From Rhodanobacteraceae bacterium (GTDB lineage Bacteria > Pseudomonadota > Gammaproteobacteria > Xanthomonadales > Rhodanobacteraceae): a DNA stretch of 64,000 nucleotides. The notes beneath the pieces are model-generated. The model ran no database searches, was not told where the DNA came from, and saw only the letters and a list, made by a program, of their open reading frames with translations. The first letter of the stretch is position 1. The number at the start of each line of letters is the position of its first letter. The stretch is from positions 62,001 through 126,000 of the forward strand of contig JAEUPP010000068.1 in assembly GCA_016790075.1 (NCBI GenBank), given 5' to 3'. Made by a program: the position numbers and the translations under genes. This document shows, piece by piece, positions 7,711-26,806 of the stretch.

Positions 7711-8172
7711 TCAGACGTAAGGATCGGCAATGCCAAGCCGTGCCAGTGCGCGGCGTTCGATGGCTTCCATCTGTTCGGCTTCGATGTCGAGGTGATGGTC
7801 GTAGCCGAGCAGGTGCAGTACGCCGTGTACCGTCATGTGGGCATAGTGGTGGCGTGGCGGCTTGTGCTGCTCGGCTGCTTCGCGCGCAACGACCGGGGCA
7901 CAGACGATAAGATCGCCCAATAGCGGCGTGCGCACGCCGGCTGGCAGCTCGGCCGGAAACGAGAGCACGTTGGTCGCGTAGTCGCGGCCGCGGTAGTCGC
8001 GGTTGTAGCGGCGGCCTTCGTCGTCGCCGACCAGATGTATCGACACCTCGCTCGCGCGGCGCCGCCGTGCCGCAGCAAGCGCCGCCTCGACCCAGCGCCG
8101 GAAACTGTCGGCGCGCGGAATGCCCGCAGCGGCCAGCCCTGCGGCACGGCTGAGGTGTACGCGCAGGTCCAT
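7711..8172 (-). CDS. ybeY: Endoribonuclease YbeY (rRNA maturation factor)
   Basis: The 153-residue protein has the zinc-binding UPF0054 signature [16 protein letters not shown] with three metal-ligand histidines, and the earlier strand LNVLSFP-like sequence [11 protein letters not shown]. YbeY is a metal-dependent RNase that matures the 16S rRNA 3' end and takes part in ribosome quality control. I start it at [10 protein letters not shown]; that ATG overlaps the stop of the upstream secreted-protein gene (sharing one base). In most gammaproteobacteria ybeY directly follows ybeZ; here another gene separates them. Confidence 0.93.
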
Positions 8173-9023
8173 CAGCGTTCGAAATCGTCGACAAACACCG
8201 CCGGCGCGCAACGTTGCACGAGGGTGACCCGATTGGCGCCGGATTCGGGAATGCCGATCGCGCCGCTGCGTGGATCGAAGTCGATGTCGGCCGGATTGGA
8301 TAGCGCGGCTGCCTCTATCGTTGCGGGCGAGGTCGCTGTGAAAGGCGGCTCGAAGCGCGCGAGGCAGCCTCCGCCACCGGGACAGCTCCAGGCGGCGATA
8401 TAGAGATGGCCGTTGCAGTCCAGCGTGATGCCGTCGATGTTGCTGTACCCGGTTGCGGTTATCAGTGTCGTCGGCGCGGTGTTCGTGGCGATGTCGTAGC
8501 TGAGCACGCGCCCGCTGCCCCAGGTCGCGATCAGCAGGCGGTTGTTGGCCTTGTCATAGATCACGCCGTTGGGGGTTGGTGTCAGCGTCTGCAACAGCGT
8601 CTGTACCGGGCTTGCTAGATTGGCCACATCTACCCGGTGCAGGCGTTTTGCGCTGAAGTCGGTGATGTAGAGGGTGTGATCGCCATCGGAGGTGATGCCG
8701 TTGAGGAAGCTCGCACCGGTGATTGCGAGGTTCAACACCGAGGCTGCGGTATCGACGTCATAGCCACGCAGGAAGCCGGAATCGAGCACGAATACGGTGC
8801 CGCGCAGAAACTCGATGCCGTAGGGCGCAGTCGGTGCCGCCGTAAACGTACTGAGTGTCCCGCTGGAGGTGCGCCAGAGAACGTCGCCACCGGACGGATT
8901 ACTGACCAGATGCCGGCCCGAGCGCGGGTGAAACTCGACACTCTCCGGGCCATTCAGCACCTGCGCCGGAACGGCAGCGGCATGCAGCATCAGCAGCAAA
9001 GCGCAGATTGACCGTTGTTTCAT
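8172..9023 (-). CDS. Secreted beta-propeller-like (NHL/SMP-30-type) protein with tail motif
   Basis: This 283-residue protein starts with a clear signal peptide ([21 protein letters not shown]). The body is built of repeated beta-strand units of the type [23 protein letters not shown] and [18 protein letters not shown], as in NHL or SMP-30/gluconolactonase propellers. No catalytic residues can be assigned, so I do not propose an enzyme function. The C-terminus is [12 protein letters not shown], one of the shared tails in this region. The gene is placed between ybeZ and ybeY: its ATG overlaps the ybeZ stop by ATGA and its stop overlaps the ybeY ATG by one base, so it is coupled to both. A periplasmic or extracellular protein inside this RNA-processing operon is odd. 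Confidence 0.78.
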
Positions 9024-10003
9024 GTGTTACTCCCCCCGTCTTTTGCCGCCTCGTGTTTTTCGTAGGCGCGCACGATTTTCTGCACCAACGGATGGCGTAC
9101 CACGTCGTGTGCCGTGAAAAATGTAAAGCTGATGCCGGACACCTCGCGCAGCACATCGATTGCATCGCGCAGGCCCGAACGTACTTGCCGTGGCAGGTCG
9201 ATCTGGGTCACGTCGCCGGTGACGACAGCAGCGGAGCCGTAGCCGATGCGCGTGAGGAACATCTTCATCTGCTCAACCGTCGTGTTCTGCGCTTCGTCGA
9301 GGATAACGAATGAGTCGTTGAGCGTGCGGCCGCGCATGTAGGCGAGCGGGGCGATCTCGATGACATTGCGCTCGATGAGCTTGGCCACTTTTTCGAAGCC
9401 GAGCATTTCGTAGAGCGCGTCGTAAAGCGGGCGCAGATAGGGGTCAACCTTCTGGGTGAGGTCGCCGGGCAGAAAACCCAGCTTTTCGCCGGCCTCGACC
9501 GCGGGTCGCACGAGGATGATGCGCTGCACCCGGTTGGCTTCGAGCGCATCCACCGCGCTGGCCACAGCGAGATAGGTCTTGCCGGTGCCGGCCGGGCCTA
9601 TGCCGAAGTTGATGTCATGTGTCGCGATCGCGTGCAGGTAGCGCGTCTGGTTGGGACCGCGGCCCTTGATCGAGCCGCGTTTGACCCGGATCACGACGTC
9701 CTGCGCACTGGTGGCCGCAGCAAGGTCGAGCGCGGCGACATGGGATTCCTGCAGATGCAGGTTGATCCCGCGCGCGTCGAGTACCTCGTCCTCGGTTGCT
9801 GCATAGAGTGCGCGCAGTACTTTTTCGGCAGCGTCAACGTGGCCCTGGTCGCCATCGATACGGAACACGTTGCCGCGATTGGCCACACTGACGCCAAGAC
9901 GCAGCTCTATCTGGCGCAGATGTTCGTCGAACGGACCGGCCAGGTTCGCCAGGCGTTCGAGGTCTTCGGGTTCCAGCGCGAATTCGCGGCGTGCATTGGG
10001 CAT
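9020..10003 (-). CDS. ybeZ: PhoH-like ATPase YbeZ
   Basis: The 327-residue protein has Walker A GPAGTGKTYLA and Walker B FVILDEAQNTT of the PhoH family, with the following TGDVTQIDLPR. The first 110 or so residues form the N-terminal nucleic-acid-binding-like region typical of YbeZ. YbeZ works with YbeY in RNA processing. Its stop overlaps the ATG of the inserted secreted-protein gene, not ybeY. miaB, which normally lies immediately upstream, is found about 19 kb away on the same strand (29163-30494). Confidence 0.94.
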   Translation of the reverse strand: MPNARREFALEPEDLERLANLAGPFDEHLRQIELRLGVSVANRGNVFRIDGDQGHVDAAEKVLRALYAATEDEVLDARGINLHLQESHVAALDLAAATSAQDVVIRVKRGSIKGRGPNQTRYLHAIATHDINFGIGPAGTGKTYLAVASAVDALEANRVQRIILVRPAVEAGEKLGFLPGDLTQKVDPYLRPLYDALYEMLGFEKVAKLIERNVIEIAPLAYMRGRTLNDSFVILDEAQNTTVEQMKMFLTRIGYGSAAVVTGDVTQIDLPRQVRSGLRDAIDVLREVSGISFTFFTAHDVVRHPLVQKIVRAYEKHEAAKDGGSNT

Positions 10004-10360
10004 AGGGGGGGCAGGTTAACGCAGCGTGGTGGCGGCCTGCCAGCGTGAGCCGCGGGCAAGGCCGTGTGCACGAAGCCGGGGCGTCCGAAGCCGGCACCGC
10101 GTGAGCGGTGCGGGTGCTGTGGTTGGGGAGATGGCCGAGCGGCTGGCCGCTCTTTCCCACACCGCTGTTTCCCGCTGGCTCGGCCGCTGGTCCGTTCCGT
10201 TGGGCGTTAGGTCAGCGCCATTCCAGCCTGGCCCCGCATTCATGCGCTTTCATCGGCAGATGTTCGGATTTCTTTCCGTTGGGCGTTATTCGCAGCATCC
10301 GGCTGATAACGCAGACGTCGGTCGCGTCAACTCCGTTTACGTCAACTAATGGGTGGGACC
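10004..10360. other. Intergenic region between ybeZ and the first beta-helix gene
   Basis: No convincing gene lies here. The stretch contains a partial tRNA-like start (GGAGATGGCCGAGCGGC near 10129), which does not fold on into a tRNA, and a 15-base direct repeat TTCCGTTGGGCGTTA at 10195-10209 and 10274-10288. The promoters for ybeZ (leftward) and the beta-helix gene (rightward) must lie in it, but no hexamers stand out. Confidence 0.5.
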
Positions 10361-12610
10361 ATGTACTCGATGCAATCCGCGCACTTATGCAGCAAGAGGC
10401 CTTACTCCGGCGTACGGCGCCTGGGGGCGCTGTGGCTGGTGGGCGCGATGCTGGGTGTGCTGAGCGTGCAAGCTGGCGCTGAAATCTACAACGTAAACGT
10501 GTCCAACGATGCCGTGCAGGATCCGGCCACCACCAACAAGTGCGCCACCCTGGGCGATACCACGAAATGCTCACTGCGCGCCGCGATCATGTTCGGCAAT
10601 ACGCGCGCCGGCTCGCACACCATCAACTTCGTTGGCGTTACCTCGATCACGGTGATCAATGGCGGGCTGCCGCAGTTGCGCGCGCCGTTCACCATCAATG
10701 GCAACCGCGTGACGATCAACGGCAATGGTCGTGGTTGCCTGGATCTCACCGACTCCGGCACCGCCGCGCTGGGTCATGCCGACGGCGCGACTGGCTCGAA
10801 GATCTTCAATCTGACGATCGGCAACTGCAATGGCAATGGCATCAGCGCCAACGGCCACAACTATACGTTCAGTGGCAACTACATCGGCGTGAACGGTACC
10901 GGGGCGGTCGCGATGCCCAATTCGGGCGATGGAATCTCGGTCTCGTCGTCGCGGGTCTACCCGGATACCAGCACCGGGTTCCTGTCCAATCTGTACGCGC
11001 AATTTCCGGTGCAGCCGGTGGACGCGTCAGCCATCAACGCCTTCCAGAGCCAGCTGGCCACGACCCTTGCCTCGCTGCAGCCCGTGCAGATTTCCGGCAA
11101 CGTCATTTCCGGCAATGGCGGCGACGGCATCGAGCTTTTCAGTCAGAACCTCGCCGGGGTATTCATCAGCGGCAACATGATCGGCACCGACCTGACCGGC
11201 AACATCGCAATTGCGAACGGCGGCAACGGCGTCAATCTGGTCGGTACCACCTTCGCCAACATGATTGGTCCGGGCAACGTCATCAGCGGCAACAATGGCA
11301 ATGGCATCAACGCCGTCGCCGGTTCCGTGTTCCTGCCGAACTTCATTATGGGCAACCGAATCGGCCTGAGTGCCACCAACCAAGCAGTGCATATCGGCAA
11401 CACCTTGAGTGGCATCTATGTTGACTCGAAGCCCGATACGTCGGCGACGAGCTTCAATCCGAGTTCCACCTCCCTCGTGATCGGCCCGGCCAATCTGATT
11501 TCCGACAACAAGGGTACGAACAACAACGCTTTCCCGGATGTGGGGGCCGACTATGGCGGCATCATGATCACGGGGGCGAGCAATGGCGTGAAGGTGCTCT
11601 ACAACACGATCGGACTGGCCGAGTTCCCCACCGGCACCGCGATCAACTCCGCCGCCTTCGGCAACAAAGGCGACGGCATTATCGTCACCACCACCGGTAA
11701 CTCCATTACCGGTAACATCGTGGCGGCAAACGCACGCCACGGAATCACCATCCGTGGCAGCAGTACCAACAGCACCAGTGTCCTGAAAAACTTTGTAGGC
11801 ATCAGCCCGAAATTCGCCAGCGTCACGACCCTGGGCAACGGCGTGGATGGCATCCATATCGAAACGGCCGCCTCGACCTCGGTGGGTGGCCCCAATTACG
11901 CTGATCGCAACGTGGTCGTCGCGAACAAGCGCAATGGCATCAAGCTTTACAACGGTGGCGGCGATACCAGCGGCTGGGCCAATCTGTTCCAGCGCAACCA
12001 CGTCTACGGCAATGCCAAATCGCTGCCCGGTGTGGATATCGATCTTGAGCACAACGCCAACGCCGCCGACGTAGACCACAGCGAATTCCCCGCCAATTAC
12101 GCAAATCGCGACCAGAACACGCCGCGGATCTGCACCGGCACCGATGTCAGCGGGCCGTGTGCCGGTCTCGCGGGGCCCGCCAACACCACACCGAACACCA
12201 CGTTGCGCTGGATACTGGCCAGCCATGGCCCGGCTACCTTTCGCATGGAGTTCTATTCGATCAATGCCGCCACGACTGCCGCGGCAACCTCGATGGTGTT
12301 CCTGGGTGAGCAGACGATAACCACCGACGCGACCGGCAAGCCTGCCAACAGCGCCTCGTGTGTGGCGGGTTGGTGCCTTGCCATCTTGCCGCCCGTATCC
12401 GCCGGGCGCCGTGTCGTGATGACCGCGACTGACGTCACGCCGTTGACCAATGTGCCTTCCGGCTCCGGCTGGCAGGGACAGCTGAAGTGTTTCCTTGGCA
12501 ATAACGGCATCATCCTGTCGGCCTGCACTGCCAACAACACGTCCGAATACTCGAACGTCGTTGCCATTACCGGCGGCGACGTCCTGTTTGCCAACGGCGT
12601 CGATCTGTAA
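10361..12610 (+). CDS. Secreted CSLREA-type right-handed beta-helix protein with tail motif
   Basis: This 749-residue protein begins with a long n-region and a signal peptide core (LWLVGAMLGVLSVQAGA) and then a CSLREA-like motif, DTTKCSLRAAIMFGN. The body is a parallel beta-helix with many Asn/Gly-rich turns such as ISGNVISGNGGDGIELF and NGNGISANGHNYTFSGNYIG. Proteins of this type are exported and mostly uncharacterised; some are pectate-lyase-like folds without known activity. The C-terminus is GGDVLFANGVDL, matching the tail shared by neighbours. I use the ATG at 10361 because GGTGGGACC precedes it at a good distance; the ATG at 10349 would add four residues. A strong terminator follows. 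Confidence 0.85.
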   Translation: MYSMQSAHLCSKRPYSGVRRLGALWLVGAMLGVLSVQAGAEIYNVNVSNDAVQDPATTNKCATLGDTTKCSLRAAIMFGNTRAGSHTINFVGVTSITVINGGLPQLRAPFTINGNRVTINGNGRGCLDLTDSGTAALGHADGATGSKIFNLTIGNCNGNGISANGHNYTFSGNYIGVNGTGAVAMPNSGDGISVSSSRVYPDTSTGFLSNLYAQFPVQPVDASAINAFQSQLATTLASLQPVQISGNVISGNGGDGIELFSQNLAGVFISGNMIGTDLTGNIAIANGGNGVNLVGTTFANMIGPGNVISGNNGNGINAVAGSVFLPNFIMGNRIGLSATNQAVHIGNTLSGIYVDSKPDTSATSFNPSSTSLVIGPANLISDNKGTNNNAFPDVGADYGGIMITGASNGVKVLYNTIGLAEFPTGTAINSAAFGNKGDGIIVTTTGNSITGNIVAANARHGITIRGSSTNSTSVLKNFVGISPKFASVTTLGNGVDGIHIETAASTSVGGPNYADRNVVVANKRNGIKLYNGGGDTSGWANLFQRNHVYGNAKSLPGVDIDLEHNANAADVDHSEFPANYANRDQNTPRICTGTDVSGPCAGLAGPANTTPNTTLRWILASHGPATFRMEFYSINAATTAAATSMVFLGEQTITTDATGKPANSASCVAGWCLAILPPVSAGRRVVMTATDVTPLTNVPSGSGWQGQLKCFLGNNGIILSACTANNTSEYSNVVAITGGDVLFANGVDL

Positions 12611-12635
12611 TCGCCATTCACTCTGGCTGGCCCAG

Positions 12636-12670
12636 CGAAGCTCGCGCCATGCGCGAGCTTCGTGCTTTTT
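12636..12670 (+). terminator. Rho-independent terminator after the beta-helix gene
   Basis: A perfect 12-base stem (CGAAGCTCGCGC paired with GCGCGAGCTTCG, loop CAT) is followed by TGCTTTTT. It lies 26 bases after the stop codon, the standard position for an intrinsic terminator. Confidence 0.9.
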
Positions 12671-12842
12671 CTGAAGAGGAATCGGGGAGGTGGGCACCTG
12701 TAGCGTTGAAGTGGGTCGCTTAACCTGACCATTGCCGGCTTCGATCCATGACCCGGTGACTCGCGGAATCACCAGTCCTTGGCGAGTAGAGGAACTTCCC
12801 ATCATATGTTCCGCCGGATTCGTCCCGGAGCTTCTGCGCGGA

Positions 12843-13799
12843 CTAGGAGCCTGCGCGGCAGAAGGAACAGAGGACCGATAGCCTGAGCCGACCGGTCATC
12901 CGCCACGATGATCTGACGCGCGGCATCTACCGCCGTCTGCACGTGGTAGCTGTGCTCAAAGCCACCGTTAGGCTGCTTCATGATCCGGCTCTGCGGATCG
13001 GTGAAGCGGGTCTGGTCCGAGTCCTCCGGTACGCCGGAGTCGCGCTTGAATCGCTTGCTCCGCCTCGGTGTGCCATCCGGATGCCGCGGCTTGCGCTCGT
13101 CGCCCTCATGCCGCCCACGCGCCGCATCGGCCTGGCGTTGCTGCGTCTCCAGGTGCGCCTTTGCCGCTTCAATCGCAGCCAGCCGCTGCTCGCGCCGAGC
13201 GATCTCGGCCGGCAAATCGTGCTCGGGTTCGTTCCAACAAGGCTGCGATCTGCTGCGTTAACTCGGCCTCGGCCTGTTCCATCCGCCCGTAGCTCATCGC
13301 CTTGTGGCGCGACGCGTTGGCTTTCACCCTGGTGTCGTCTACCGCGATCATGCCCAGCTTCACCAAACCGCACGCGCGCGCCAGCTTCACCACCTGCACG
13401 AACAACCCCGGCAGCTCCGCCCGATGCAGAGCGCGGAAGTCGCTCAGCGTCCGATGCGCCGGAAAGTTGCCGGCGGCCAGAGCCCGCAACGCTACGTCCT
13501 CGTGCAGCCGCTTGGCCAGCTTGCGCGAAGAGAACACCCCGGTCGCGTAGCCTCAGGGCAATACCTTCACCATCATCACGGGATGAAACGGTTGGTTGCG
13601 CGGCCCACCCTTGGCGTACCGCGCGTGAAACGCCGACAGGTCGAGCGACTCCACCGTATTAGCAATGAAGTAGGCCTGATGGCCCGCGGGAAGCCAGTCC
13701 GCCACCGACACTGGCAACAGGTGGGCTTGATCGGGGTAGACATGCAGCAACTGTCGCTCAATCGTTCTGTCAGATCGCTTCTGCTGCGCAGGCTCCTAG
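12843..13799 (-). mobile_element. Internally deleted IS1182-family insertion element
   Basis: The element is bounded by near-perfect inverted repeats: GGAGCCTGCGCGGCAGAA at the left (12846-12863) and its complement TTCTGCTGCGCAGGCTCC at the right (13779-13796), with one mismatch. CTAG abuts each repeat and may be a 4-base palindromic target duplication. Inside is a broken transposase on the minus strand. The length, about 0.96 kb, is well short of the roughly 1.6-1.7 kb usual for this family, because the C-terminal half of the transposase is gone while both ends remain. It could only move if a full copy elsewhere supplies transposase. Confidence 0.85.
12880..13750 (-). pseudogene. IS1182-family transposase, broken
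   Basis: The reading is recognisable in three pieces. The N-terminal piece (13750 to 13553) contains LLPVSVADWLPAGHQAYFI and FHARYAKGGPRNQPFHP, then an in-frame TGA where the family has a tyrosine before GYATGVFSSRKLA. The second piece (13537 to about 13190) contains LHEDVALRALAAGNFPAHR and KANASRHKAMSYGRM. A frameshift, apparently with loss of a short linker, then leads into the third piece (13215 to 12880) with PAEIARREQRLAAI and FTDPQSRIMK. After HVQTAVDAARQIIVADDRSAQ the sequence jumps straight into the terminal repeat. No ATG start is present. The gene cannot make an active transposase. Confidence 0.9.
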
Positions 13800-14017
13800 G
13801 TTCCTGAATCAATGCCTCCGCAATCGAGCCACACAAAACCGCCGCGCTGGCGGAGAACGTGTTGCGGCTTTGTGTGTGGCTGTACCAGGTCTGGCCGTAC
13901 CAGGTCAGCCACTGGCGGCGTGTCAGTTACGCCGTGGAACGACGTAGGTAGCACGGAGGCCCCGGCCGCGCCGTGTCGGCGCTACCGGATCCGGGCCACT
14001 ACTGCGAGAAAACTGCC

Positions 14018-15547
14018 ATGTCGAACCGAGCCTTCCTTTTTCCTTGCCGCCGCGCCGCGCCCTTCCTGTTGTGCTGCGGCTTTGCCTTGGCGCCGCCGCT
14101 CGGCGCCGCAGACTCGCCGCAGGACGGTAATTTCGACCGCAGCTTCAATACGGTGCCGAGCTGGAACGGCGCACCAGGATGGGCAACGATTCCATTCGAT
14201 CCCTCCGGTCGTACGCCGCGCGATACGGCCCTGGGCGTGAGGATGCTGCTGGACGGGACGATGATCATCGGCGGTCTGGCGGGGCGCGACCGGCTGGACG
14301 ACAACAACGGCTTGCTCGCCGCGGTGCGCCTGAACAGCGACGGCACGCCCAGCAGCTTCTGGGCCAGCCCGGAAGACCTGCGCGGCGGCACGCAGCCCGG
14401 CCGTATCACCTGGCCGTATATGTATGACTTCTTCACGATGACCCCGGCCGGCATGAACCCCGGCGGCAACGAAGGCGTGGGTTTCGCCGGCTCCGGCCGC
14501 GTCACGATCGGCACAAACATCAACAGAGCGAAATATTTCAGCGTTTCGCCCTCCGGCACCACGCTCAACGGCGGCCTGGGCACCTGCGAACTCTATGCAG
14601 GCGGCGCGCTGCGCAATTTCTTCGCGCTGGGCGCCAGCACGCGTTACTACGACTCGGCAGTGATTGCCGGCTATGTGCGGCGCTACGGCGATCAGGCCTA
14701 CCTTGAGGCCAACTGCGAGCTGACGCGCAACCAGGTCAGAACACGCACCGTGCCGGACACCTTGCCGAGTACACCGGCCGGCGTGATCGGTGCCGTCAGC
14801 ATCATGCCGCACTATGTGACCGCCGACGCTACAGTCTATTCGCGCCGCCTGTTCCGCAACTTCAACAGCGCCGCAGACAACGACGTCGAACTGTGCGAGC
14901 CCGGCTACAACTACACGGTCACGCCGCCGACGCCGTACACCAACTGCAGCGTATTCCAGCCAAACGTCGGCGGGCACCTCGACGATCTGCTGTTCAGCGT
15001 GGTGCCGACCTACGGCGGCTTCACCACCGGCCTGATCGAGTCGCAGGCGGAGTCCAGTCCTGGCGGCGGCGACGACCGCCGCGTACTGACCATTGCCCGG
15101 CCGCGCGTCTACGGCGTCAATGCCACCGGCGACGTTTACGAGCGCGATTCGCAGTTGCGTACCTATCAGCTCGGGGACGCCACCACCCCTGCGTCGTCAC
15201 TGTCGTTCCACTCGCCAATCGGTGTCTTTGACGGCCGCAACGGCACGACGCTCTGGGTGGTCATGGCCCTGCGTCCATTCCCAGGTGCCAACGAGTACCG
15301 CGAAATCGCCGTGGCGCGGTTCAAGTACTATGACTTGTCGCTTGACACGCGTTTCGGCAACGGCACCGGCTGGCGCCGCTATAGTCTCGGCGGCGCCGAA
15401 GTGATGCCCAATGCGGTCGTGCTCGACAACCAGGGGCGCCTCGTCATCGCCGGCACACGGCGCTACAACCCTGATACCGACGACTGGGACTTTTTCGTCA
15501 TGCGCATCAACGACGATGTGCTGTTCCAGGACAAATTCGGCGACTGA
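14018..15547 (+). CDS. Secreted protein resembling delta-60 repeat proteins, with tail motif
   Basis: This 509-residue exported protein has a signal peptide (APFLLCCGFALAPPLGAADS) followed by DGNFDRSFNTVPSWNG, a start typical of proteins with delta-60-type repeats (FDxSF...G). Later sections such as LDTRFGNGTGWRRYSLGG and VVLDNQGRLVIAGTRRYNP fit the same repeat type, which is predicted to form a beta-propeller. The function is unknown. It ends DDVLFQDKFGD, another of the shared tails. I place the start at ATG 14018, which gives the signal peptide; upstream in-frame residues do not belong. The gene at 24471-25961 has the same general architecture. Confidence 0.78.
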   Translation: MSNRAFLFPCRRAAPFLLCCGFALAPPLGAADSPQDGNFDRSFNTVPSWNGAPGWATIPFDPSGRTPRDTALGVRMLLDGTMIIGGLAGRDRLDDNNGLLAAVRLNSDGTPSSFWASPEDLRGGTQPGRITWPYMYDFFTMTPAGMNPGGNEGVGFAGSGRVTIGTNINRAKYFSVSPSGTTLNGGLGTCELYAGGALRNFFALGASTRYYDSAVIAGYVRRYGDQAYLEANCELTRNQVRTRTVPDTLPSTPAGVIGAVSIMPHYVTADATVYSRRLFRNFNSAADNDVELCEPGYNYTVTPPTPYTNCSVFQPNVGGHLDDLLFSVVPTYGGFTTGLIESQAESSPGGGDDRRVLTIARPRVYGVNATGDVYERDSQLRTYQLGDATTPASSLSFHSPIGVFDGRNGTTLWVVMALRPFPGANEYREIAVARFKYYDLSLDTRFGNGTGWRRYSLGGAEVMPNAVVLDNQGRLVIAGTRRYNPDTDDWDFFVMRINDDVLFQDKFGD

Positions 15548-15578
15548 ACGCATCGTCCTGGCAGCGAGACTCTGGCCC

Positions 15579-15639
15579 GGAAACGGAGCCAGGTTAACTT
15601 AGTGACTTTGTTCAGTAAGTTAACTTGACCCCGTTTTTC
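15579..15639. repeat. Palindromic repeat, copy 1
   Basis: The sequence is an imperfect palindrome: GGAAACGGAGCCAGGTTAAC on the left pairs with the complement of GTTAACTTGACCCCGTTTTTC on the right, with TTCAG in the loop. A second copy lies at 17839-17900 in the same orientation, so the two bracket the sulfatase gene. Elements of this look are often dispersed REP/MITE-type repeats, but I cannot assign a family. Confidence 0.8.
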
Positions 15640-15651
15640 ACTTGCCGCTTC

Positions 15652-17652: not shown

Positions 17653-18299
17653 GGTGATCTCCTGTATCCCGATCGCGGGATCTTATCTGAGCGTAAGTCC
17701 GCTGTTGCTCGTTAGCTCCTCTACTGATGTCGTTGGTGCAATGACTCATCCGTGTGGCAACCGCTAAAGCCGCCCACTTCTGCTTGACGCCAAGCGCTTC
17801 GAGGTGGTCACGATGGCCGGCGCACCGGCCTTGGGTTTGGAAACGTAGCCAGGTTGACTTGATGATCTTGTTCAGTAAGTTAACCCGACCCCGTTGTTGC
17901 ATTGGATCCACTAATCCACGGCCCTGAATGTCACCCCAGCTTCAGCGTGGTGGCCCATTCCTCCCTGGGCGACAAGGATCAACGGAGTGCACACCAGTTC
18001 GCTGCCCAGCCACAGCCACAGCGCGCTGAACTCCTTGTTCCCGGACATTACGAATGTGCCAGTTTGTCCTGCCAGCCTCTCAAGCGGCAGGGCTTTGCTC
18101 AGAAAGCCGCCGGCGCCGTGGAAGCTCAGCAAACGGGACGTGAACTTGGTTGTCTGGAACGGCGGGTGTCTCAAGGGTGTCGCCTCAAGGGGGCTGGCAG
18201 CTGATTCGAGCAGCCCGGAGCGAAAAACGGTAGGCGGCACCGCAATGAGGCCGCCTACCGCCCGGGGCATTTCATGCAGCCGTCAGCTGGGATACAGCA
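17653..18299. other. Gene-free stretch upstream of the sulfatase
   Basis: I find no supported gene in these 650 bases. They contain the second palindromic repeat. A reverse-strand open frame of 119 codons (18270 to 17911) has no signal, domain or convincing start, and I do not call it. The composition is visibly less GC-rich than the core genes, in keeping with acquired DNA. Confidence 0.5.
17839..17900. repeat. Palindromic repeat, copy 2
   Basis: It matches copy 1 over its whole length with scattered differences, for example GTAGCCAGGTTGACTTGA against GGAGCCAGGTTAACTTAG, and the shared core TTGTTCAGTAAGTTAAC is identical. Same orientation as copy 1, 2260 bases away, on the other side of the sulfatase gene. 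Confidence 0.8.
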
Positions 18300-19784
18300 T
18301 CACCACTGCTTCTGGATGCTCGAAAGCGAGTCATTCTCGCAATCTGGATCGTCGGCCCACGTGCCTGGATAGCACCATGACCCTTGGTAGTTCTCGTGTT
18401 CGAACAACTTCCAGCCGCTTCGCCTGTGCGAGAAATACCTGATGTTGCTGACCACGTCGTTCATCGTACGGCCGATCTTGGGCACGTCCTCGACCGCGCA
18501 GTCTGCGATGCCTTCCCATCCTGTCTCGCTGCTGTAGCAAATTTGATTGATTCCATTGGTCAGATTGGCCGGAACATTGAAGTTTCCCCTGGGCGGGCTG
18601 CTCTTTGGATCGGGCTCGGATTTCGAGCTGTGACGCGGCTCGTCGAAGAGATTGCGTGAGAAGTTATTGCAGGCATCGCCGTTCTCGGATCCATCCGCGA
18701 ACACGCATTCGTAGATCTGTGGTTGGATCACAGTGCCGTCGCCACGGCAATCCCACCACGTTTTATAGAATTCACCGAACAGGTTGTCGAAACCAAATCG
18801 GCAGTAATTGGTAGGGTAGTGTCCATGGAAGTAGGTGCCCACATAAACACGATGCCGATTGCCGTCGCGTGGTGTTGAATTCCAGGGATAGATCGTTACC
18901 GCACCGCCATGCACGCGATATTTCACAGCCACAGGACTGTTGTTGACGAAATGGATGCTCGTCGTTTCCCAGTCGTCGCCGTGTGCGCCGCCGATCCAGC
19001 CTTGCTGCCAGCCGTAGAACACATGGAAGTTGATCCAGTAGCTGTACGTGCCGCCGCCCTGTTCGTTCGGCCGAAAGGTCACGCTCGGATACACCGGAAC
19101 GTGGGCAGGAATGCTCGGGCGGCATCGTTCCTTGTCTTGCGGTTTCCATTCAATCGGGAAGCAGAAGGATTGCCCTTCCTCGTCACGGTCGTACTTGGAG
19201 TGGAAGTAATACACCGGCGCATAGTCCCGCATCTGTTGCAGGATCGTCTCGCTCAGGTCGCCGTGATCAACGATCGCGCTCTTGCTGGCGAAATGGCTGA
19301 GCGGCCGACCGTAGAGGTTGCGGCTGCCGAGATTCAGCGCCGTAAGGATGGCCTCTTCCGAGTATTCGCCATTGAACATCTCGATCAAGCGCGGGTTCGT
19401 TTCCGCGATGGCCAGCGCCTCCTTGCCGTAACGCTGCTCGATGATCGAACGAACAATCGGGTCGTGTGCGGAGTCGCGCAGCGCCTTCGACTTGATCGCG
19501 GCCTCACGCTCGTCCGTGGCGCTGACTACAGCCGGAACGTCCGGCTCGCGCGGCCCACGCTTTACGATATTCACCGCGCCAGAGCTGTCCACATAGTGGC
19601 TGACGGGGCGCTCGCCCTGGCTGACCAGGTCGAGCCCGTAGCTCGGAGTCTGCCCGGCACCATTCACTCGACTCGTTCCTTGGCCCGTGGTCTCGCTGGC
19701 TAGCTCAGCGCCGGCGAGTACAGGGCTCGCCGAAAGCAGGGCGATGAACGAGCCTAGTATCCAATTCTTCAGACTATTTACCAT
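18300..19784 (-). CDS. Secreted Vps62-like protein with C-terminal beta-gamma-crystallin motif
   Basis: This 494-residue protein has a signal peptide (NWILGSFIALLSASPVLAGA). The middle part (about residues 190-345) resembles Vps62-type domains, with FHVFYGWQQGWIGGAHGDDWE as the key G-x-H-x-D-W-E element, and aromatic-rich strands such as VYVGTYFHGHYPTNYCRFG. The last 45 residues, WKLFEHENYQGSWCYPGTW to the end, look like half of a beta-gamma-crystallin domain; NDSLSS at 484-489 fits the calcium-binding (N/D)(N/D)xx(S/T)S motif. The two-domain build is not one I know as characterised. Base composition is less GC-rich than neighbours, suggesting transfer. A secreted surface or toxin-like role is possible but unproven. 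Confidence 0.65.
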   Translation of the reverse strand: MVNSLKNWILGSFIALLSASPVLAGAELASETTGQGTSRVNGAGQTPSYGLDLVSQGERPVSHYVDSSGAVNIVKRGPREPDVPAVVSATDEREAAIKSKALRDSAHDPIVRSIIEQRYGKEALAIAETNPRLIEMFNGEYSEEAILTALNLGSRNLYGRPLSHFASKSAIVDHGDLSETILQQMRDYAPVYYFHSKYDRDEEGQSFCFPIEWKPQDKERCRPSIPAHVPVYPSVTFRPNEQGGGTYSYWINFHVFYGWQQGWIGGAHGDDWETTSIHFVNNSPVAVKYRVHGGAVTIYPWNSTPRDGNRHRVYVGTYFHGHYPTNYCRFGFDNLFGEFYKTWWDCRGDGTVIQPQIYECVFADGSENGDACNNFSRNLFDEPRHSSKSEPDPKSSPPRGNFNVPANLTNGINQICYSSETGWEGIADCAVEDVPKIGRTMNDVVSNIRYFSHRRSGWKLFEHENYQGSWCYPGTWADDPDCENDSLSSIQKQW

Positions 19785-20461
19785 GTTTGCTCCTTATACG
19801 TTTTGCATGGCCCTTGGGATGACATAAGGCACGGCCGAACAAAGCAGCGGTGTCGCGGAATAGGGGCATGCTGCCCGCGACACCAGCACGTATGCGCACG
19901 AATCAGCGACGGAAAACGTAGGCCGACTGCCGTGGTGTCACCGCTGCGGCGATGCCGGCCAATGCCCGGCCAGATTCAGTGCGTTATTTTGTACGGTTGT
20001 ATTCATTTGCCGTGCGTCGGCTCTACCGCGCGAGTGGATCGATTGCTGCCGGAAAACGGCAGAGCCGTAGGCAAGAGCGGCAGGTGATCAGTCACAAGCG
20101 GCATAGTGTGCTGACGGCTATCACGACATCGTGGGCAAATTGTGGAATGGCCGGACAGCGCCGTGGGAGGAAGCACCATGGGGCACGCACCGATGTGCAC
20201 AATTCAGGGCCGCAAGCCCGATCCATTGATGGAGAGTCCCCTGACCAGCCAGAGCGGCGCAGCCCCACTGACGCTCTGACACCACCTGCCGCACGCGGCG
20301 GCTGGTCTATTGGGCCACTTCAGGTTGCCGCACTGTTGGGCTGCACCGCATTAGTCGCATCCGCACTCGCCCAGACCACGGTGAATTTTGGGAGCGGATA
20401 GTGTCGCTGAATTCCCTCCCCGGTGCGGGGAGGGCAGGTGCTCATGGTTAGGGAGCAGTAG
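19785..20461. other. Gene-poor stretch with a hairpin and a doubtful reading frame
   Basis: No gene is supported. A forward frame ends at 20401 with a signal-peptide-like run (LQVAALLGCTALVASALAQT) followed within seven codons by a stop; it could be the beginning of a lost secreted-protein gene. A GC hairpin lies at 20414-20434. Confidence 0.4.
20414..20434. terminator. GC-rich hairpin, possible terminator or REP-like unit
   Basis: CCCTCCCC pairs with GGGGAGGG across the loop GGTGC. It lies 28 bases beyond the stop of the reverse-strand outer-membrane protein gene. No T-tract follows, so a REP-like repeat or a Rho-dependent end is as likely as an intrinsic terminator. Confidence 0.45.
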
Positions 20462-21004
20462 TCAGAAACGAAACTCGGTATTGACGCTGATCACGTTGGC
20501 GTCGAAATCCATGCCGCTTTTGCCGGCACGGTAGTGGTCGTAGTTGAGGCCGAGGCTGAAGCGCTCGCTGAAGTCGTAGCCCACACCAGCGCCGGCGTAC
20601 CAGTCGTTGCCGCTGAATTTCGCGTTCGTAGGGCTGGCGACGAGATCCATATCGGCCTTCCAGTGGAACAGTCCTGCCCGGGCCGAGAGATACCAGTTGG
20701 GCGTCAGGTTGAAATGGCCGTTGGCGCCCAGCGTCCAGCCCGCGACATCGATGCCGGAGTGCAGTCCCGACGAACCGGTGTAACCGCGGTCCAGCGAGCC
20801 CAGGTCGACGTAGCCACCTTCGAGCCCGAACGCACCCCAGCGGTAGCCGCCGTTGATGCCTAGCGCGGTGTCCTTGCCTGAACTGTCGAAGTCCGAGCGA
20901 CCATAACGGCCGTCCACGAAAAAGCCGTCAGCCCGCGCGGCTCCGGCGGAGCAGATTCCCGCGACGATGGCCGCAGCCATCGCCGTCACGATCTTCACAT
21001 TCAT
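20462..21004 (-). CDS. Small outer-membrane beta-barrel protein
   Basis: The 180-residue precursor has a signal peptide (IVTAMAAAIVAGICSAGAARA) and then alternating beta-strands with aromatic girdles: WGAFGLEGGYVDLG, WTLGANGHFNLTPNWYLSARAGLF, WYAGAGVGYDFSERFSLGLNYDHY. It ends VNTEFRF with the terminal phenylalanine needed for barrel assembly by the BAM complex. This fits the eight-stranded OmpA-like/OmpW-like porin-family barrels that appear in many proteobacteria. No ligand can be inferred. The start ATG is preceded by AGGAAAACGCG, a fair ribosome site. It stands alone between accessory genes. Confidence 0.85.
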   Translation of the reverse strand: MNVKIVTAMAAAIVAGICSAGAARADGFFVDGRYGRSDFDSSGKDTALGINGGYRWGAFGLEGGYVDLGSLDRGYTGSSGLHSGIDVAGWTLGANGHFNLTPNWYLSARAGLFHWKADMDLVASPTNAKFSGNDWYAGAGVGYDFSERFSLGLNYDHYRAGKSGMDFDANVISVNTEFRF

Positions 21005-21167
21005 CGCGTTTTCCTGTTTTTTGGATATTGGGAAAACCTCGCAAGGGCGCGCTCCCGGCGAGGCTGCGCGACTATCGAAGAATCGAGCTGAACAGTGCCG
21101 CCTATGAAGGCTGAACGGTTTGGTCGCGATTCACACAACTGGCAGGAAACGCTGTGCTGCCGTACCG

Positions 21168-22592
21168 TCACTGAAAATTGTTTGCGAAGATCGCGTCGCT
21201 GCTGCGCTCATCGGCGCCGATGTCGTAGGGCGCTGTGCGGATCTGCCGGTCTATGTCGTCGGCAACCTGTGCCAGCGTCTGCCCCCGGTCGATAGCGGCG
21301 CTGCCGGCGGGCAGGTGTCCATCGTTGGCGACGCTGAGCGGGGTTTCCAGGCTGAGGCTGTCGGTGTTCAGCGCGCTGCGCCATTGAGGCAATGTGCCAC
21401 CAGCGTTCAGTGGGCTGCCGGGGCGCAGGTCAATATAGCGGCAGGCACCGGCGGTGTCGTAGAACGCGTTGTAGTCGCTGCCCGGATTGCCGGAAAGGCC
21501 ACTGAGGCCGCCGAGATCCTGCGAATAGCGTATGGCCATGCAGGGACGTGCGTTCTGGATCACCAGGTTGTTGCGCACCAGCGCCCCCGTGTTTGCCGGT
21601 CTTCCCGCGTCGGGGTCGAAGTCCTGCAGGGTGACGCCGTAGTAGATTGCGGCGTGGCCAGAACGGGCTGCATCGATGACGGTGTTGTTCGCGACTACCG
21701 CGTCGCGGGACGCGTACAGGCCGATGCCCGCGTAGTTCGTGCCGCGCACGAGGTTGTTGCGCACGATGCCGCGGATCGCTTCGTAGTACTGCGGATTTTC
21801 CGTCAGGTCGAAGAACTCGGGGCTGGTGTCAAAACCAATGAGAATGCCGGCCTCGCCCGCGTTCTCGATGCGATTGCGCTGCACGATCACGTCGCGCGCG
21901 CCACCCTTGAAGTAAACACCGGTCGTGGCGGTGTCATGGATGTAGTTGTCCTCGACCAGCATGTTCGAGCCGTTGACGTTGTCGATGCCTTCGGCGTTCT
22001 TGTCCTCCGGCGGTGTGCCCGGCGGGTAGATGGCGCCCGAGGCATAGATCTCGTTGCGGCGTATGGTCACGTGGTTGCATTTGGGGGTGATCTTGATCAC
22101 GTCGCGGCCGCTGCCGTGCAGTTTCGAGTCTTCGATGATGATGTTCGACGCGCCAGTGCCGCTGGTACCGTCCGGACGATACCAGTCGGTTTGCAGGAAG
22201 ACGGCGTAGAGGTTGCCGCCGCTGACTTCCAGGCGCGAAATGCGGCTGCCCGAGGCGTCTGGATCGATCTGAATGCAGACCGTGTCCGCGACATTGATCG
22301 GACACGCGATATGCGCCCATTCGCCCGGATGGCTGCGCAGGGTCAGCGGCACGCGCAGGCGCACTTCGGTTTCATTGTATACATTGTTGTTGGTCGGGCC
22401 GCGCAGCGTGATGATGTCGCCGGCCTGCACGATGTCGTTGGCTGGATCGACGACGTGGCTCACGCTGCGGAAAGGCTGGCTGATCGAGCCGTTGCCACTG
22501 GCATCGCTGCCGCTGGTGGAAACAAACCACTCCGCGCCGTGCGCGGTTGGCGTGAGTGCGAGCAACGAGCAAAGGGCAACTGTCGAGCGCAT
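21168..22592 (-). CDS. Secreted right-handed beta-helix protein with tail motif
   Basis: This 474-residue exported protein (signal peptide STVALCSLLALTPTAHGA) begins EWFVSTSGSDASGNGSISQP, the common entry of pectate-lyase-like beta-helix proteins, where the G-x-x-x-x-P-F motif marks the first turn (SQPFRSVSHVV). The helix repeats are seen in NMLVEDNYIHDTATTGVYF, DVIVQRNRIENAGEAGILI and DAVVANNTVIDAARSGHA. Near the end is APYDIGADE, a frequent closing motif. Polysaccharide lyase or binding activity is possible, but I see no assignable catalytic base. The C-terminus SSDAIFANNFQ is the shared tail. It lies 11 bases from the next beta-helix gene and is likely co-transcribed. Confidence 0.83.
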   Translation of the reverse strand: MRSTVALCSLLALTPTAHGAEWFVSTSGSDASGNGSISQPFRSVSHVVDPANDIVQAGDIITLRGPTNNNVYNETEVRLRVPLTLRSHPGEWAHIACPINVADTVCIQIDPDASGSRISRLEVSGGNLYAVFLQTDWYRPDGTSGTGASNIIIEDSKLHGSGRDVIKITPKCNHVTIRRNEIYASGAIYPPGTPPEDKNAEGIDNVNGSNMLVEDNYIHDTATTGVYFKGGARDVIVQRNRIENAGEAGILIGFDTSPEFFDLTENPQYYEAIRGIVRNNLVRGTNYAGIGLYASRDAVVANNTVIDAARSGHAAIYYGVTLQDFDPDAGRPANTGALVRNNLVIQNARPCMAIRYSQDLGGLSGLSGNPGSDYNAFYDTAGACRYIDLRPGSPLNAGGTLPQWRSALNTDSLSLETPLSVANDGHLPAGSAAIDRGQTLAQVADDIDRQIRTAPYDIGADERSSDAIFANNFQ

Positions 22593-22603
22593 TGTGGGTT
22601 CCG

Positions 22604-24196
22604 TCAGAAGTCCAAGGTGGCGTTGAAAATGGCGTCGGTCGTGATTTCGCTGGTGTTGCCGTCGGCATCGGTAGCAAACAGTGTCAGCGCGCCGCCCAGC
22701 AGTGCGGATGTGGTGAGCACGACCGTCTTCGCGCTCTGCGCCTCGGCCGCCGTATAGGTGAATGAGGCGACCAGATTCTGCGGTTGCCCGCCACTGCCGG
22801 TCGCGACATCGACGGTCAGCGGATACGCAGCATTCGTGATGCTGCTGTCAACGTGAAACGTCAGCGCTGTTGTGGCGCCTCCCCCGGTCAGGGCGACGGT
22901 GTCGATTACCGGCGTGTTCTGCAGCCGGTTGCTGCCGCTGTCGGCATCGGCTGGGTCGTTCGGGTTGAGCCCATCCGCAAACGAGCCCAGAGCAAGATCG
23001 ACCGGCAGCCCCCGGTTGTAGGCGTAGCGGTTGCGGCCGGCGTTGACGTTGCGGCAACCGATCACCGCGACTCCGGCACCGCGGTTGTATGCGATGGTGT
23101 TGCCTTCGATGGTGATGTTGCAGGCGTCGTTGCCACCGATACTGAGGGCGGGCTGGGGCGTGCCCGGTGTGTCGCCGTTTGGCAGCGGCAGCAGGCCGCT
23201 GATCTCGGTGCCGATGAAGTTGCCCTCGATGCGCGTTCCGCTATATGCACCGGCACCGGTAGTGCTCAAGGCTATTGCGCCGATCGGGTTGCCCGAGATC
23301 AGGTTGCGCGCGCCTGCCTGCGGACCACCGATGCGCGCATTGGTGAAGCGCGATGTGGTGTAAATGGCCGCATAGCTGGTCTGGCCTATGGCGGCTGTGC
23401 CACTGCGGTCGGTGCCGATGAGATTACCCTGCACCGTCAGGCCGTCGTTGTCGCGCTGCAGGACGATGGCACCGGCAAGGCCGCTGAGCAGATTGCGGGC
23501 CGCAGGCGCTGTACCGCCGATGAGATAGCCGCCCGCGCCGTAGGTGACGACGCCATAGCCGCGGCCGCCCGACGTCGAAACCGCAGCGGCGGTCCCGGTA
23601 ATGGTTGTCCCGAGAAAGCAGCCCTCGATCCGATGTGCGGACGTGCCCCATAGCTGGATCTGCTGAGCAAACCGGTTGATCGCGAGTCCGCGAAACGTGC
23701 TTGCCGCCTGGAACGGGAAATTCGGTGAGATCTCCAGGCCGTTCTGCTGCTGCCCCGATGCAGTGCCTGGGGTCAGCTCAACCTTCAGGACGGTGTTGAG
23801 CCCACCACTTTCTGCAGCTGTCGTATTTGGTATCGCCCCAGGTTGTGTATAGCCGTCGATCTCCACGGCATTGTCTATAGCCGGCAATGGACTCGTGCCT
23901 ACCGTGATGCGCCAGTGGTCGGTTGCGGCCTGGTAGCTTGTGTCGCTGACAGGAATCGCGAATTCGATGCGGTCAGGGCTGGGGTTTCCATTCGCGTTCT
24001 GGATTGCCCCGCGCAACGAGCAGTCGTCTGGCTGTTGCGGGTCGCAGGCGGTCAGCGCGAGATCGATGCCGGTATCGACGACATAGGTTGCCGCATAAGG
24101 GATGGCGGGTAGCAGCATCCCTACAGCAAAGGCGAGCCTTGTCGGGGCCATCGCAAGCCCGAGTGCTCCGGGTGTGCGTACCAACACGCGACTCAT
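22604..24196 (-). CDS. Secreted CSLREA-type beta-helix protein with divergent tail
   Basis: The 530-residue protein has a signal segment (LAFAVGMLLPAIPYAATY) and then the CSLREA-like motif QPDDCSLRGAIQNANG, as in the gene at 10361. The body contains beta-helix turns, including LTVQGNLIGTDRSGTAAIGQ and CNITIEGNTIAYNRGAGVAV, and a probable C-terminal beta-sandwich. The end TTDAIFNATLDF is a weaker version of the shared tail. I choose the ATG at 24196 (MSRVLVRTPG); an ATG at 24148 (MAPTRLAFAV) is equally possible. The long in-frame extension upstream is not protein-like. It is followed closely by the other beta-helix gene. Confidence 0.8.
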   Translation of the reverse strand: MSRVLVRTPGALGLAMAPTRLAFAVGMLLPAIPYAATYVVDTGIDLALTACDPQQPDDCSLRGAIQNANGNPSPDRIEFAIPVSDTSYQAATDHWRITVGTSPLPAIDNAVEIDGYTQPGAIPNTTAAESGGLNTVLKVELTPGTASGQQQNGLEISPNFPFQAASTFRGLAINRFAQQIQLWGTSAHRIEGCFLGTTITGTAAAVSTSGGRGYGVVTYGAGGYLIGGTAPAARNLLSGLAGAIVLQRDNDGLTVQGNLIGTDRSGTAAIGQTSYAAIYTTSRFTNARIGGPQAGARNLISGNPIGAIALSTTGAGAYSGTRIEGNFIGTEISGLLPLPNGDTPGTPQPALSIGGNDACNITIEGNTIAYNRGAGVAVIGCRNVNAGRNRYAYNRGLPVDLALGSFADGLNPNDPADADSGSNRLQNTPVIDTVALTGGGATTALTFHVDSSITNAAYPLTVDVATGSGGQPQNLVASFTYTAAEAQSAKTVVLTTSALLGGALTLFATDADGNTSEITTDAIFNATLDF

Positions 24197-24405
24197 GGGG
24201 CGAGCCTGCGGCCGGGAAACGCGACGGCCCGGAAGCGAGAAAGCCGAGCCGGGCACGGCGGGGCGAATCGCAAGGAGGAAATGGCGACTGCGTCGGTTCG
24301 CATGGATGGCTCCTGGGTGATGTGCCAGGACGTACGCCGTTGACGGCTGGACCTGACATGGCGCCGGAATGCGGAGGACATCCGTCCGCGCCTTCGGGGC
24401 AACGT

Positions 24406-26169: not shown

Positions 26170-26733
26170 TTGCAGCACGATACGGGGGTCACGCAGCAGT
26201 TGCGGCAATGGCAGCAGGGCGATGAAGGCGCGCTCGATGCGTTGCTGCCGCTGGTCTATGAAGATCTCCGCCGCATCGCGGCGCACGAACTGCGCAGCCA
26301 TCGCGGCCACGAGACGCTGCAGCCGACTGCACTGATCAACGACGTGTTCGTGCGACTGCTCGGTGCGAGCAGCCTGGATATCAGCAACCGCAAGCATCTC
26401 TACACCACGGCTGCGAAGCTCATGCGGCAAATCCTGATCGATCGCGCACGCGCGCAATCGCGCGACAAACGCGGCGGTGGGCAATGGCAGCGCGTTGATT
26501 TCATCGAGGCGATGGCATTGCCGATCGAACAGGACACGCATCTGCCGGCGCTTGATGAGGCATTGACGGCGCTGGCGGCGCTCGATGCACGCATGGCCGA
26601 AATCGTCGAACTGCGCTATTTCGTCGGCCTTGAAGTCGTTGAGGTCGCGAACTTGCTTGGGGTCGACGAGCGCACTGTTTATCGCGACTGGGCGATGGCG
26701 CGCGCCTGGCTGCGGCACCAGCTCGGCGCGTGA
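26170..26733 (+). CDS. ECF-type RNA polymerase sigma factor (TIGR02999-like)
   Basis: This protein of about 187 residues belongs to the ECF-like sigma factors often called TIGR02999. Region 2 is seen in LVYEDLRRIAAHELRSHRG and LQPTALINDVFVRLLG, and region 4 in AEIVELRYFVGLEVVEVANL and DERTVYRDWAMARAWL, the DNA-recognition helix. The usual acidic DAED stretch of sigma region 2.2 is replaced by QPTALIND with a threonine. No ATG lies close to the conserved start; I use TTG 26170, which gives the family's normal length, but a GTG further up is possible. The Ser/Thr kinase gene starts 74 bases downstream, and the two probably form a signalling pair. The target promoters are not visible. Confidence 0.8.
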   Translation: MQHDTGVTQQLRQWQQGDEGALDALLPLVYEDLRRIAAHELRSHRGHETLQPTALINDVFVRLLGASSLDISNRKHLYTTAAKLMRQILIDRARAQSRDKRGGGQWQRVDFIEAMALPIEQDTHLPALDEALTALAALDARMAEIVELRYFVGLEVVEVANLLGVDERTVYRDWAMARAWLRHQLGA

Positions 26734-26806
26734 GCGGCGCGGGACTGTCAGCCGTTGCCCTGCCTCAGCGTATGTGGGAACCAAAACCAGCTGGCATTTC
26801 ACGCTC

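What the first reader, a model, noticed from the sequence alone, without database searches (positions are those of the whole stretch)
8172..24196. A short C-terminal tail shared by five unrelated secreted proteins
Five exported proteins of different folds end in a similar tail: [12 protein letters not shown] (8172 gene), GGDVLFANGVDL (10361 gene), DDVLFQDKFGD (14018 gene), SSDAIFANNFQ (21168 gene) and TTDAIFNATLDF (22604 gene, weaker). The common form is about D-x-[IVL]-F-x-[DN]-x-F-[DE]. Different folds with one tail argue for a sorting, secretion or surface-attachment signal rather than shared ancestry. I know of PEP-CTERM, MYXO-CTERM, IPTL-CTERM and T9SS tails, but none with this pattern, and I recall only similar DGFE-like endings in relatives. 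It may be an undescribed export signal of this group.
Basis: partly seen in the sequence, partly recalled or inferred. Interest (0 to 1): 0.75.

Follow-up and report, generated by a model that had tools for sequence, protein, structure and literature searches.

The report
Short terminal tag on exported proteins
A nine-residue tag at the very end of dozens of otherwise different exported proteins occurs in some relatives of Xanthomonas, almost only where they also carry a second, PDZ-containing type II secretion machine, which suggests a simple export code of a kind not thought to exist for that machine.

Summary
The form is D-x-[ILV]-F-x-[ND]-G-F-[EDQ]-end; information falls to background before -9. 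Within the order it is strongly bimodal; 292 genomes of the phylum outside the order have at most 3 hits each, control level.

Carriers have a second type II secretion system ("T2SS-A"): its own GspD clade, a GspC with a PDZ domain and its own GspG. Of 63 genomes with at least 8 tails, 60 have GspC-A; the own family splits 5 both / 29 neither, f2 1 / 34. Family f10 seemed a counter-example (GspC-A, few or no tails) but carries the tail with R for G.

Best reading: a short linear address that sends folded periplasmic proteins to T2SS-A, perhaps through the GspC PDZ. The association is shown; recognition is inferred. Surface attachment after export and lineage co-inheritance remain open. No Pfam or NCBIfam model covers the tail in 10 examples.

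The parts
8172..8210 (-). tail [16 protein letters not shown] of the SGL/NHL-like exported protein 8172-9023
   Evidence: translation; strict motif VFVDDFE plus one residue; Pfam SGL
12572..12610 (+). loose tail GGDVLFANGVDL-stop of the beta-helix protein 10361-12610
   Evidence: translation; F of the core replaced by V; does not match the strict motif
15512..15547 (+). loose tail DDVLFQDKFGD-stop of protein 14018-15547 (weak delta-60-repeat match)
   Evidence: translation; K at the G position; not in the strict count
21168..21203 (-). canonical tail SSDAIFANNFQ-stop of the beta-helix protein 21168-22592, directly behind a choice-of-anchor Q match (residues 426-462) that is under the cut-off
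22604..22642 (-). degenerate tail TTDAIFNATLDF-stop of the beta-helix protein 22604-24268
   Evidence: translation; only the DAIF half is kept
26170..26733 (+). ECF-type sigma factor (TIGR02999), one of 22 of its kind in this genome; relatives 54-56% identical to it lie beside T2SS-A in G026 and G057
26774..29080 (+). Ser/Thr protein kinase next to the sigma factor

Best explanation
The tail is a short linear export address. Proteins cross the inner membrane by an N-terminal signal peptide, fold in the periplasm, and display D-x-[IL]-F-x-[ND]-G-F-[EDQ] on a flexible end. That end is recognised by the periplasmic parts of a dedicated second type II secretion system (T2SS-A), most plausibly the PDZ domain of its GspC and/or the GspD N-domains. 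This recruits very different folds to one exit. Because a few residues may follow the tag and it can sit at the mature N-terminus, the binding is probably not the classical carboxylate-capping PDZ mode.
For: Tag statistics. Signal peptides: 105 of 127 vs 392 of 1031. 168 tail proteins, last 20 residues removed, fall into 57 groups by single linkage at E <= 1e-3, the largest of 102; 5 of 168 have a TM-like stretch in the last 60 residues. GspD: within the own family the 10 well-assembled tail+ genomes have a 547-584-bit GspD besides one at 468-499 bits; in the 20 tail- genomes none exceeds 490 bits; the eleventh tail+ genome, G037, is fragmentary with 405. Tree of 40 GspD: two deep clades, 100/100 each; clade A holds 15 tail+ genomes, clade B includes the three of those 20 tail- genomes that were put in. 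GspC-A over 200 genomes vs strict tails >=8: 60 both, 3 tail only, 41 GspC-A only, 96 neither; f1 5/0/0/29, f2 1/0/0/34. Prediction borne out: 30 of the 41 GspC-A-only genomes are family f10, and 12 of the 13 f10 genomes looked at show the tag as F-x-D-R-F, two of them less cleanly; in G092, 35 of 286 genes have it within 9 residues of the end, in stretches not chosen by the tag. T2SS-A has its own GspG in 13 of 13 carriers of tag or GspC-A and 1 of 13 others, G112. PDZ-GspC: Pfam, model with high-confidence HR and PDZ, best PDB match the EpsC PDZ 2i4s. The PDZ of EpsC is needed for one substrate, and PelI touches the OutC PDZ (PMC12369372, passages). A tail gene lies on the fetched stretch with gspC-A in 3 of 23 named loci: L230 (Dokdonella fugitiva), L233, L239.
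Against: G142 (98% complete) has 7 hits but no GspC-A; its best GspD is clade B (two of its four GspD matches were not listed). G159 (94%), G219, G111, G101 and G163 (77-90%) also have 4 or more tails without GspC-A. Four f8 genomes (G130, G167, G194, G213) have GspC-A and no strict tail; in three of them one choice-of-anchor locus was read, two run off the locus and one ends without the tag. Genomes are related, so the number of independent switches is small; f1, f2 and f9 each contain both states, f9 by one genome (G076). The sigma factors show the same split, 15-35 copies in 6 of 6 carriers vs 0-2 in 13 of 13 non-carriers. PMC12369372 speaks of the lack of a linear universal signal (passages). 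Residues after the tag and N-terminal copies fit a classical C-terminal PDZ ligand poorly. G112 has a clade-A-like GspD, a GspG of the A type and a GspC with a PDZ match (under gathering) but no tails. Whether the same protein families lack the tag outside the carriers was not tested: the letters could not be fetched.
Confidence: 0.55

Rival explanations
1. Surface-attachment tag: T2SS-A exports the proteins by other determinants, and the tail then docks them to a surface receptor or is trimmed and anchored outside, as VesB of Vibrio with its GlyGly-CTERM is both a T2SS substrate and surface bound.
For: Choice-of-anchor Q domains carry the tag in some proteins and an IPTL-like transmembrane tail in others of the same or sister genomes (L175, L178, L190), the usual sign of swappable anchors. 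The reported distribution fits equally.
Against: 5 of 168 have a TM-like stretch in the last 60 residues. Rhombosortase is over its cut-off of 84 bits in 1 of 32 genomes, a non-carrier, though the carriers G084 (82.7) and G016 (80.1) come near. The neighbour comparison showed no other candidate; it was not a genome-wide search.
Confidence: 0.25
2. Co-inheritance only: tail, T2SS-A and the sigma/kinase expansion are separate ancestral traits of the order lost together in several lineages; the tail does something else, such as protecting a terminus or binding a periplasmic partner.
For: The sigma factor expansion has the same distribution; the f1 clade-A GspD group together at 100/100, as expected of vertical descent.
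Against: The switch is joint in f1, f2 and, by one genome, f9, and GspC-A predicted a hidden variant tag in f10.
Confidence: 0.15
3. Chance or shared descent of one C-terminal domain.
For: 102 of 168 tail proteins join one single-linkage group, and two of the window's five are homologous.
Against: Control counts of 0-1 against 11-39; 57 groups with the tail removed; information confined to the last 9 residues.
Confidence: 0.02

Closest known systems
GlyGly-CTERM / rhombosortase
   Same: C-terminal tag on exported proteins, some of them T2SS substrates (VesB, PMC12369372, passages)
   Different: Has a transmembrane helix and is cut by rhombosortase; here such a segment is rare, and rhombosortase is not over cut-off in any of 24 carriers tested, two of them just under
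PEP-CTERM, IPTL-CTERM, MYXO-CTERM
   Same: Dozens of proteins per genome, on choice-of-anchor proteins (in part recalled)
   Different: Those are tripartite with a TM helix (MYXO-CTERM: abstract of PMC11980579 in listing; others recalled); this is about 9 soluble residues
T9SS C-terminal domain
   Same: C-terminal signal for outer-membrane export (recalled)
   Different: That is a folded domain of about 80 residues (recalled); here nothing is conserved before position -9
T2SS recognition of PelI/Pel3 loops and the VesB Ig fold through GspC PDZ
   Same: PDZ-GspC T2SS and a short flexible element as determinant (PMC7949064, PMC12369372, passages)
   Different: Those determinants are particular to one protein or fold; here one linear motif recurs on 57 sequence groups

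Membership tests
GlyGly-CTERM / rhombosortase system | transmembrane helix at the C-terminus | tested here: not met
   5 of 168 tail proteins have a TM-like stretch in the last 60 residues
GlyGly-CTERM / rhombosortase system | rhombosortase gene in the genome | tested here: not met
   over cut-off in 1 of 32 genomes, the non-carrier G070; 24 of the 32 have the tag or T2SS-A, of which G084 (82.7 bits) and G016 (80.1) fall just under the cut-off of 84
PEP-CTERM / IPTL-CTERM / MYXO-CTERM | tripartite tail with TM helix | tested here: not met
   NCBIfam on the last 40 residues of 10 examples gives only a choice-of-anchor domain end and weak aconitase matches
PEP-CTERM / IPTL-CTERM / MYXO-CTERM | exosortase or myxosortase gene | not tested
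   not searched
T9SS C-terminal domain | conserved folded C-terminal domain (recalled) | tested here: not met
   information at background before -9
Type I secretion C-terminal signal | no N-terminal signal peptide (recalled) | tested here: not met
   105 of 127 have a signal peptide by heuristic
Type II secretion system (T2SS-A machine) | GspC, GspD and GspE genes together and a GspG pseudopilin | tested here: met
   gspC-gspD-gspE in most clade-A loci (gspE not beside gspD in L138), gspF near it in several; GspD, GspG, GspC Pfam T2SSC. Other pseudopilins and GspL/M not tested
Type II secretion substrate | exported in a T2SS-dependent way | not testable with these tools
   needs secretome of deletion strains
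PDZ ligand | binds a PDZ domain | not testable with these tools
   PDZ present on GspC-A; binding needs an assay

The most novel reading that the evidence does not exclude
A general, portable, linear secretion signal for a type II secretion system: nine residues at a protein end, read by the PDZ-bearing GspC (or GspD) of a dedicated second T2SS, with a clade-specific dialect (G in most families, R in f10).
Probability: 0.4. Interest if true: 0.95.

Novelty: new variant of a known kind. Interest (0 to 1): 0.85.

Why it matters
How T2SS picks its cargo is a long-standing puzzle: one recent paper speaks of the lack of a linear universal signal (PMC12369372, passages) and another calls recruitment elusive, with a prevailing view that determinants are structural (PMC7949064, abstract start in listing). 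A nine-residue tag shared by 57 sequence groups and tied to one T2SS would make the question directly testable by cutting and grafting nine residues. It would also let secretomes be predicted from sequence in a group that includes Tahibacter, Dokdonella and Chiayiivirga.

Tried and rejected
Rhombosortase as partner: over cut-off in 1 of 32 genomes, two carriers just under it. Sigma/kinase genes as neighbours of tails: present in the tail stretches of all 5 sampled carriers, but a within-stretch permutation of sigma-to-tail distance is not significant (p = 0.33 strict, 0.36 loose), so I do not claim physical linkage. The first gene caller failed on G057 and was replaced; the codon models were seeded with tag-bearing ORFs, which favours calling such genes. 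A regex slip gave nothing and was corrected. The literature search for tail strings held 787 papers; the 20 listed had only unrelated words. Searches (none found; 8 of 43 listed) listed nothing that by title or abstract start describes this tail. Structure of a tail-PDZ complex: not possible with the tool.
Full report
OBSERVATION. The five tails are at the stated places. Two match a strict form, three are looser, and two of the five proteins fall in one cluster. In the window's genome (5.62 Mb, 83 contigs) the stop-anchored DNA pattern for [hydrophobic]-F-x-x-G-F-[DE] gives 11 hits against 0 for the reversed control; a broader form gives 39 against 1. 37 own-genome loci from these two calls were read; examples are SDVLFANGFE and ATDLIFANGFQ. 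A few (L009, L010, L035) are short frames that may not be genes.

ANATOMY. In 1312 genes called by my own script from stretches of five carrier genomes, the motif ends 111 times exactly at the C-terminus, 32 times 1-8 residues before it and 12 times elsewhere in 480,155 residues. The stretches were chosen around stop-anchored hits (in four of the five genomes with a pattern that demands G at -3), so the 111 and the G are enriched by choice; the 32 are not. Over 134 aligned tails, D is 65% at -9, [ILV] 95% at -7, F at -6 (fixed by the regex), A 47% at -5, N/D 88% at -4, G 87% at -3, F at -2 (fixed) and E/D/Q at -1. The regex limits the choice at -7, -4, -3 and -1; it leaves -9, -8 and -5 free. 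Upstream of -9 the information is at background. With the last 20 residues removed, 168 tail proteins (134 plus 34 from an f10 genome) form 57 groups; one holds 102 by single linkage and 49 are singletons. 105 of 127 have a signal peptide by a heuristic, vs 392 of 1031 other genes. The control rate is high because alternative starts are allowed, and most of the 22 misses look to me like signal peptides that the heuristic rejected, one of them Tat-like. Four exported proteins (L056, L059, L074, L086) carry the motif just behind the signal peptide instead.

DISTRIBUTION. In 59 genomes of the own family, 11 genomes of four genera have 11-42 hits. The other 48 (22 genera) have none, apart from one hit that reads TGG rather than stop; the control finds 2 in all. 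In 200 genomes of the order, 95 have a match: 7-59 per genome in f3, f4, f5 and f12 and in most of f9, 1-8 in most matching genomes of f6, f7, f8, f10 and f11, and none in 33 of 35 genomes of f2. Of 299 genomes of the phylum, the 292 outside the order have at most 3 each, no more than the control.

PARTNER. I looked at type II secretion because the cargo is signal-peptide-bearing. GspD was searched in 64 genomes, 29 tail+ and 35 tail-. In the own family the 10 well-assembled tail+ genomes have a 547-584-bit GspD besides one at 468-499 bits; in the 20 tail- genomes nothing exceeds 490. A 40-row tree splits GspD into two deep clades, 100/100 each. Clade B is taken as Xps-like because it holds the f2 genomes, and it includes the three of those 20 tail- genomes that were put in (G006, G010, G011). 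Clade A ("T2SS-A") holds a GspD of 15 tail+ genomes, two f10 genomes and, on a long branch whose place is unsure, the second GspD of G112. For two tail+ genomes only clade-B rows were put in: G151, whose other GspD was not fetched, and G142, whose best match is B. The T2SS-A locus is mostly gspC-gspD-gspE, in several genomes followed by gspF, often between rhlB/trx/rho-like and ftsEX-like genes (gene names by my reading). Its GspC has T2SSC and PDZ matches in the 6 clade-A proteins scanned, one with PDZ below gathering; three proteins scanned from two Xps-type loci have no PDZ match. The model of the own GspC shows a TM helix, HR domain and PDZ, and the best PDB matches are the PDZ domains of EpsC and PulC. 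A separate GspG (167-194 bits) exists in 13 of 13 carriers tested (12 tail+ and the f10 genome G067) and in 1 of 13 others, G112; the remaining 12 have only one at 93-118 bits.

CONTINGENCY. GspC-A (E <= 1e-30) over the same 200 genomes: with >=8 strict tails, 60 both, 3 tails only, 41 GspC-A only, 96 neither; at >=4, 65/6/36/93; at >=2, 74/7/27/92 (three weaker matches, G112, G193 and G212, were not counted as GspC-A). Own family 5/0/0/29; f2 1/0/0/34, where the one genome is Chiayiivirga flava by its contig length. Tails without GspC-A at >=4: G101, G142, G163, G159, G219, G111. Of these G142 (98% complete) is the clearest exception. Fisher p values are tiny (1.8e-23 to 2.2e-19), but the genomes are related, so they are not probabilities.

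THE f10 TEST. Thirty of the 41 GspC-A-only genomes are f10. I searched 13 f10 and 4 f8 genomes for choice-of-anchor Q proteins and read 30 loci. Of 27 f10 loci, 18 show F-x-D-R-F; in one of these (L173, G188) it lies about 26 residues before the end, and in one (L180, G169) the locus stops there. 1 shows the G form, 3 end in IPTL-like transmembrane tails, 3 run off the locus and 2 are unclear. 12 of 13 genomes have at least one R form (10 without those two doubtful ones); G085 has none in its single locus. In G092, 20 stretches around choice-of-anchor hits hold 286 genes; 35 have the tag within 9 residues of the end, 34 with R (33 in the script's count, plus L200:9871 where its regex caught an overlapping match) and 1 with G; 11 matches of this looser motif lie elsewhere. 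So f10 genomes do have the tag, in a dialect with a short extension. The four f8 cases stay open: of three loci read there, two run off and one ends without the tag.

OTHER CORRELATES. ECF sigma factors (two examples scanned are TIGR02999) paired with Ser/Thr kinases occur in the tail stretches of all five carriers, one pair in the window, and beside T2SS-A in G026, G057, G091 and G109, with the kinase alone in G030. They number 15-35 in 6 carriers and 0-2 in 13 non-carriers. Adjacency to tails was not significant. In Xanthomonas citri the kinase PknS phosphorylates the ECF factor EcfK (PMC13147305, title and abstract start in listing).

LITERATURE. VesB secretion needs the EpsC PDZ while most other cargo does not; the authors speak of the lack of a linear universal signal (PMC12369372, passages). 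PelI and Pel3 use flexible loops (PMC7949064, passages). No paper describing this tail appeared by title or abstract start among those listed in searches (20 of 787 listed, 8 of 43). No NCBIfam or Pfam model covers the tail in the last 40 residues of 10 examples; the matches are neighbouring domain ends and weak ones.

VERDICT. A real terminal tag that I found described nowhere, confined to one order in this sample, whose presence nearly always comes with a second PDZ-type T2SS. I put 0.55 on an address read by that machine, 0.25 on surface attachment after export, 0.15 on co-inheritance. The nearest named carrier of GspC-A is Tahibacter harae, 79% identical.

Noticed in passing
window 26170-29080 and 37379-39904: ECF sigma / Ser-Thr kinase pair and a further kinase; this sigma family is expanded to 15-35 copies in 6 tag-carrying genomes and 0-2 in 13 others.
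   Followed up: partly
L056:11239-12741, L059:2694-4907, L074:9351-10013, L086:4199-5791: Exported proteins with the same motif directly behind the signal peptide rather than at the C-terminus; L086 looks like a beta-helix protein (my reading; no NCBIfam match).
   Followed up: partly
L175, L178, L190: Choice-of-anchor Q proteins of f10 genomes ending in IPTL-like transmembrane tails; in two of these three genomes (G148, G188) another such protein carries the R-form tag.
   Followed up: no
window 24471-25961: Protein with a weak delta-60-repeat match beside the tail genes that ends YLSARLRPLD without the tag; two delta-60-like proteins (my reading) in L124 end in a loose form, DGLEY.
   Followed up: no
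L168 (G112): Second T2SS of an f2 genome (Xcs-like by recall) joins clade A on a long branch, with a GspC whose PDZ match is under gathering, but the genome has no tags.
   Followed up: partly
window 18300-19784: 494-residue predicted protein with a signal-like start (my reading) and no Pfam match near the tail genes.
   Followed up: no
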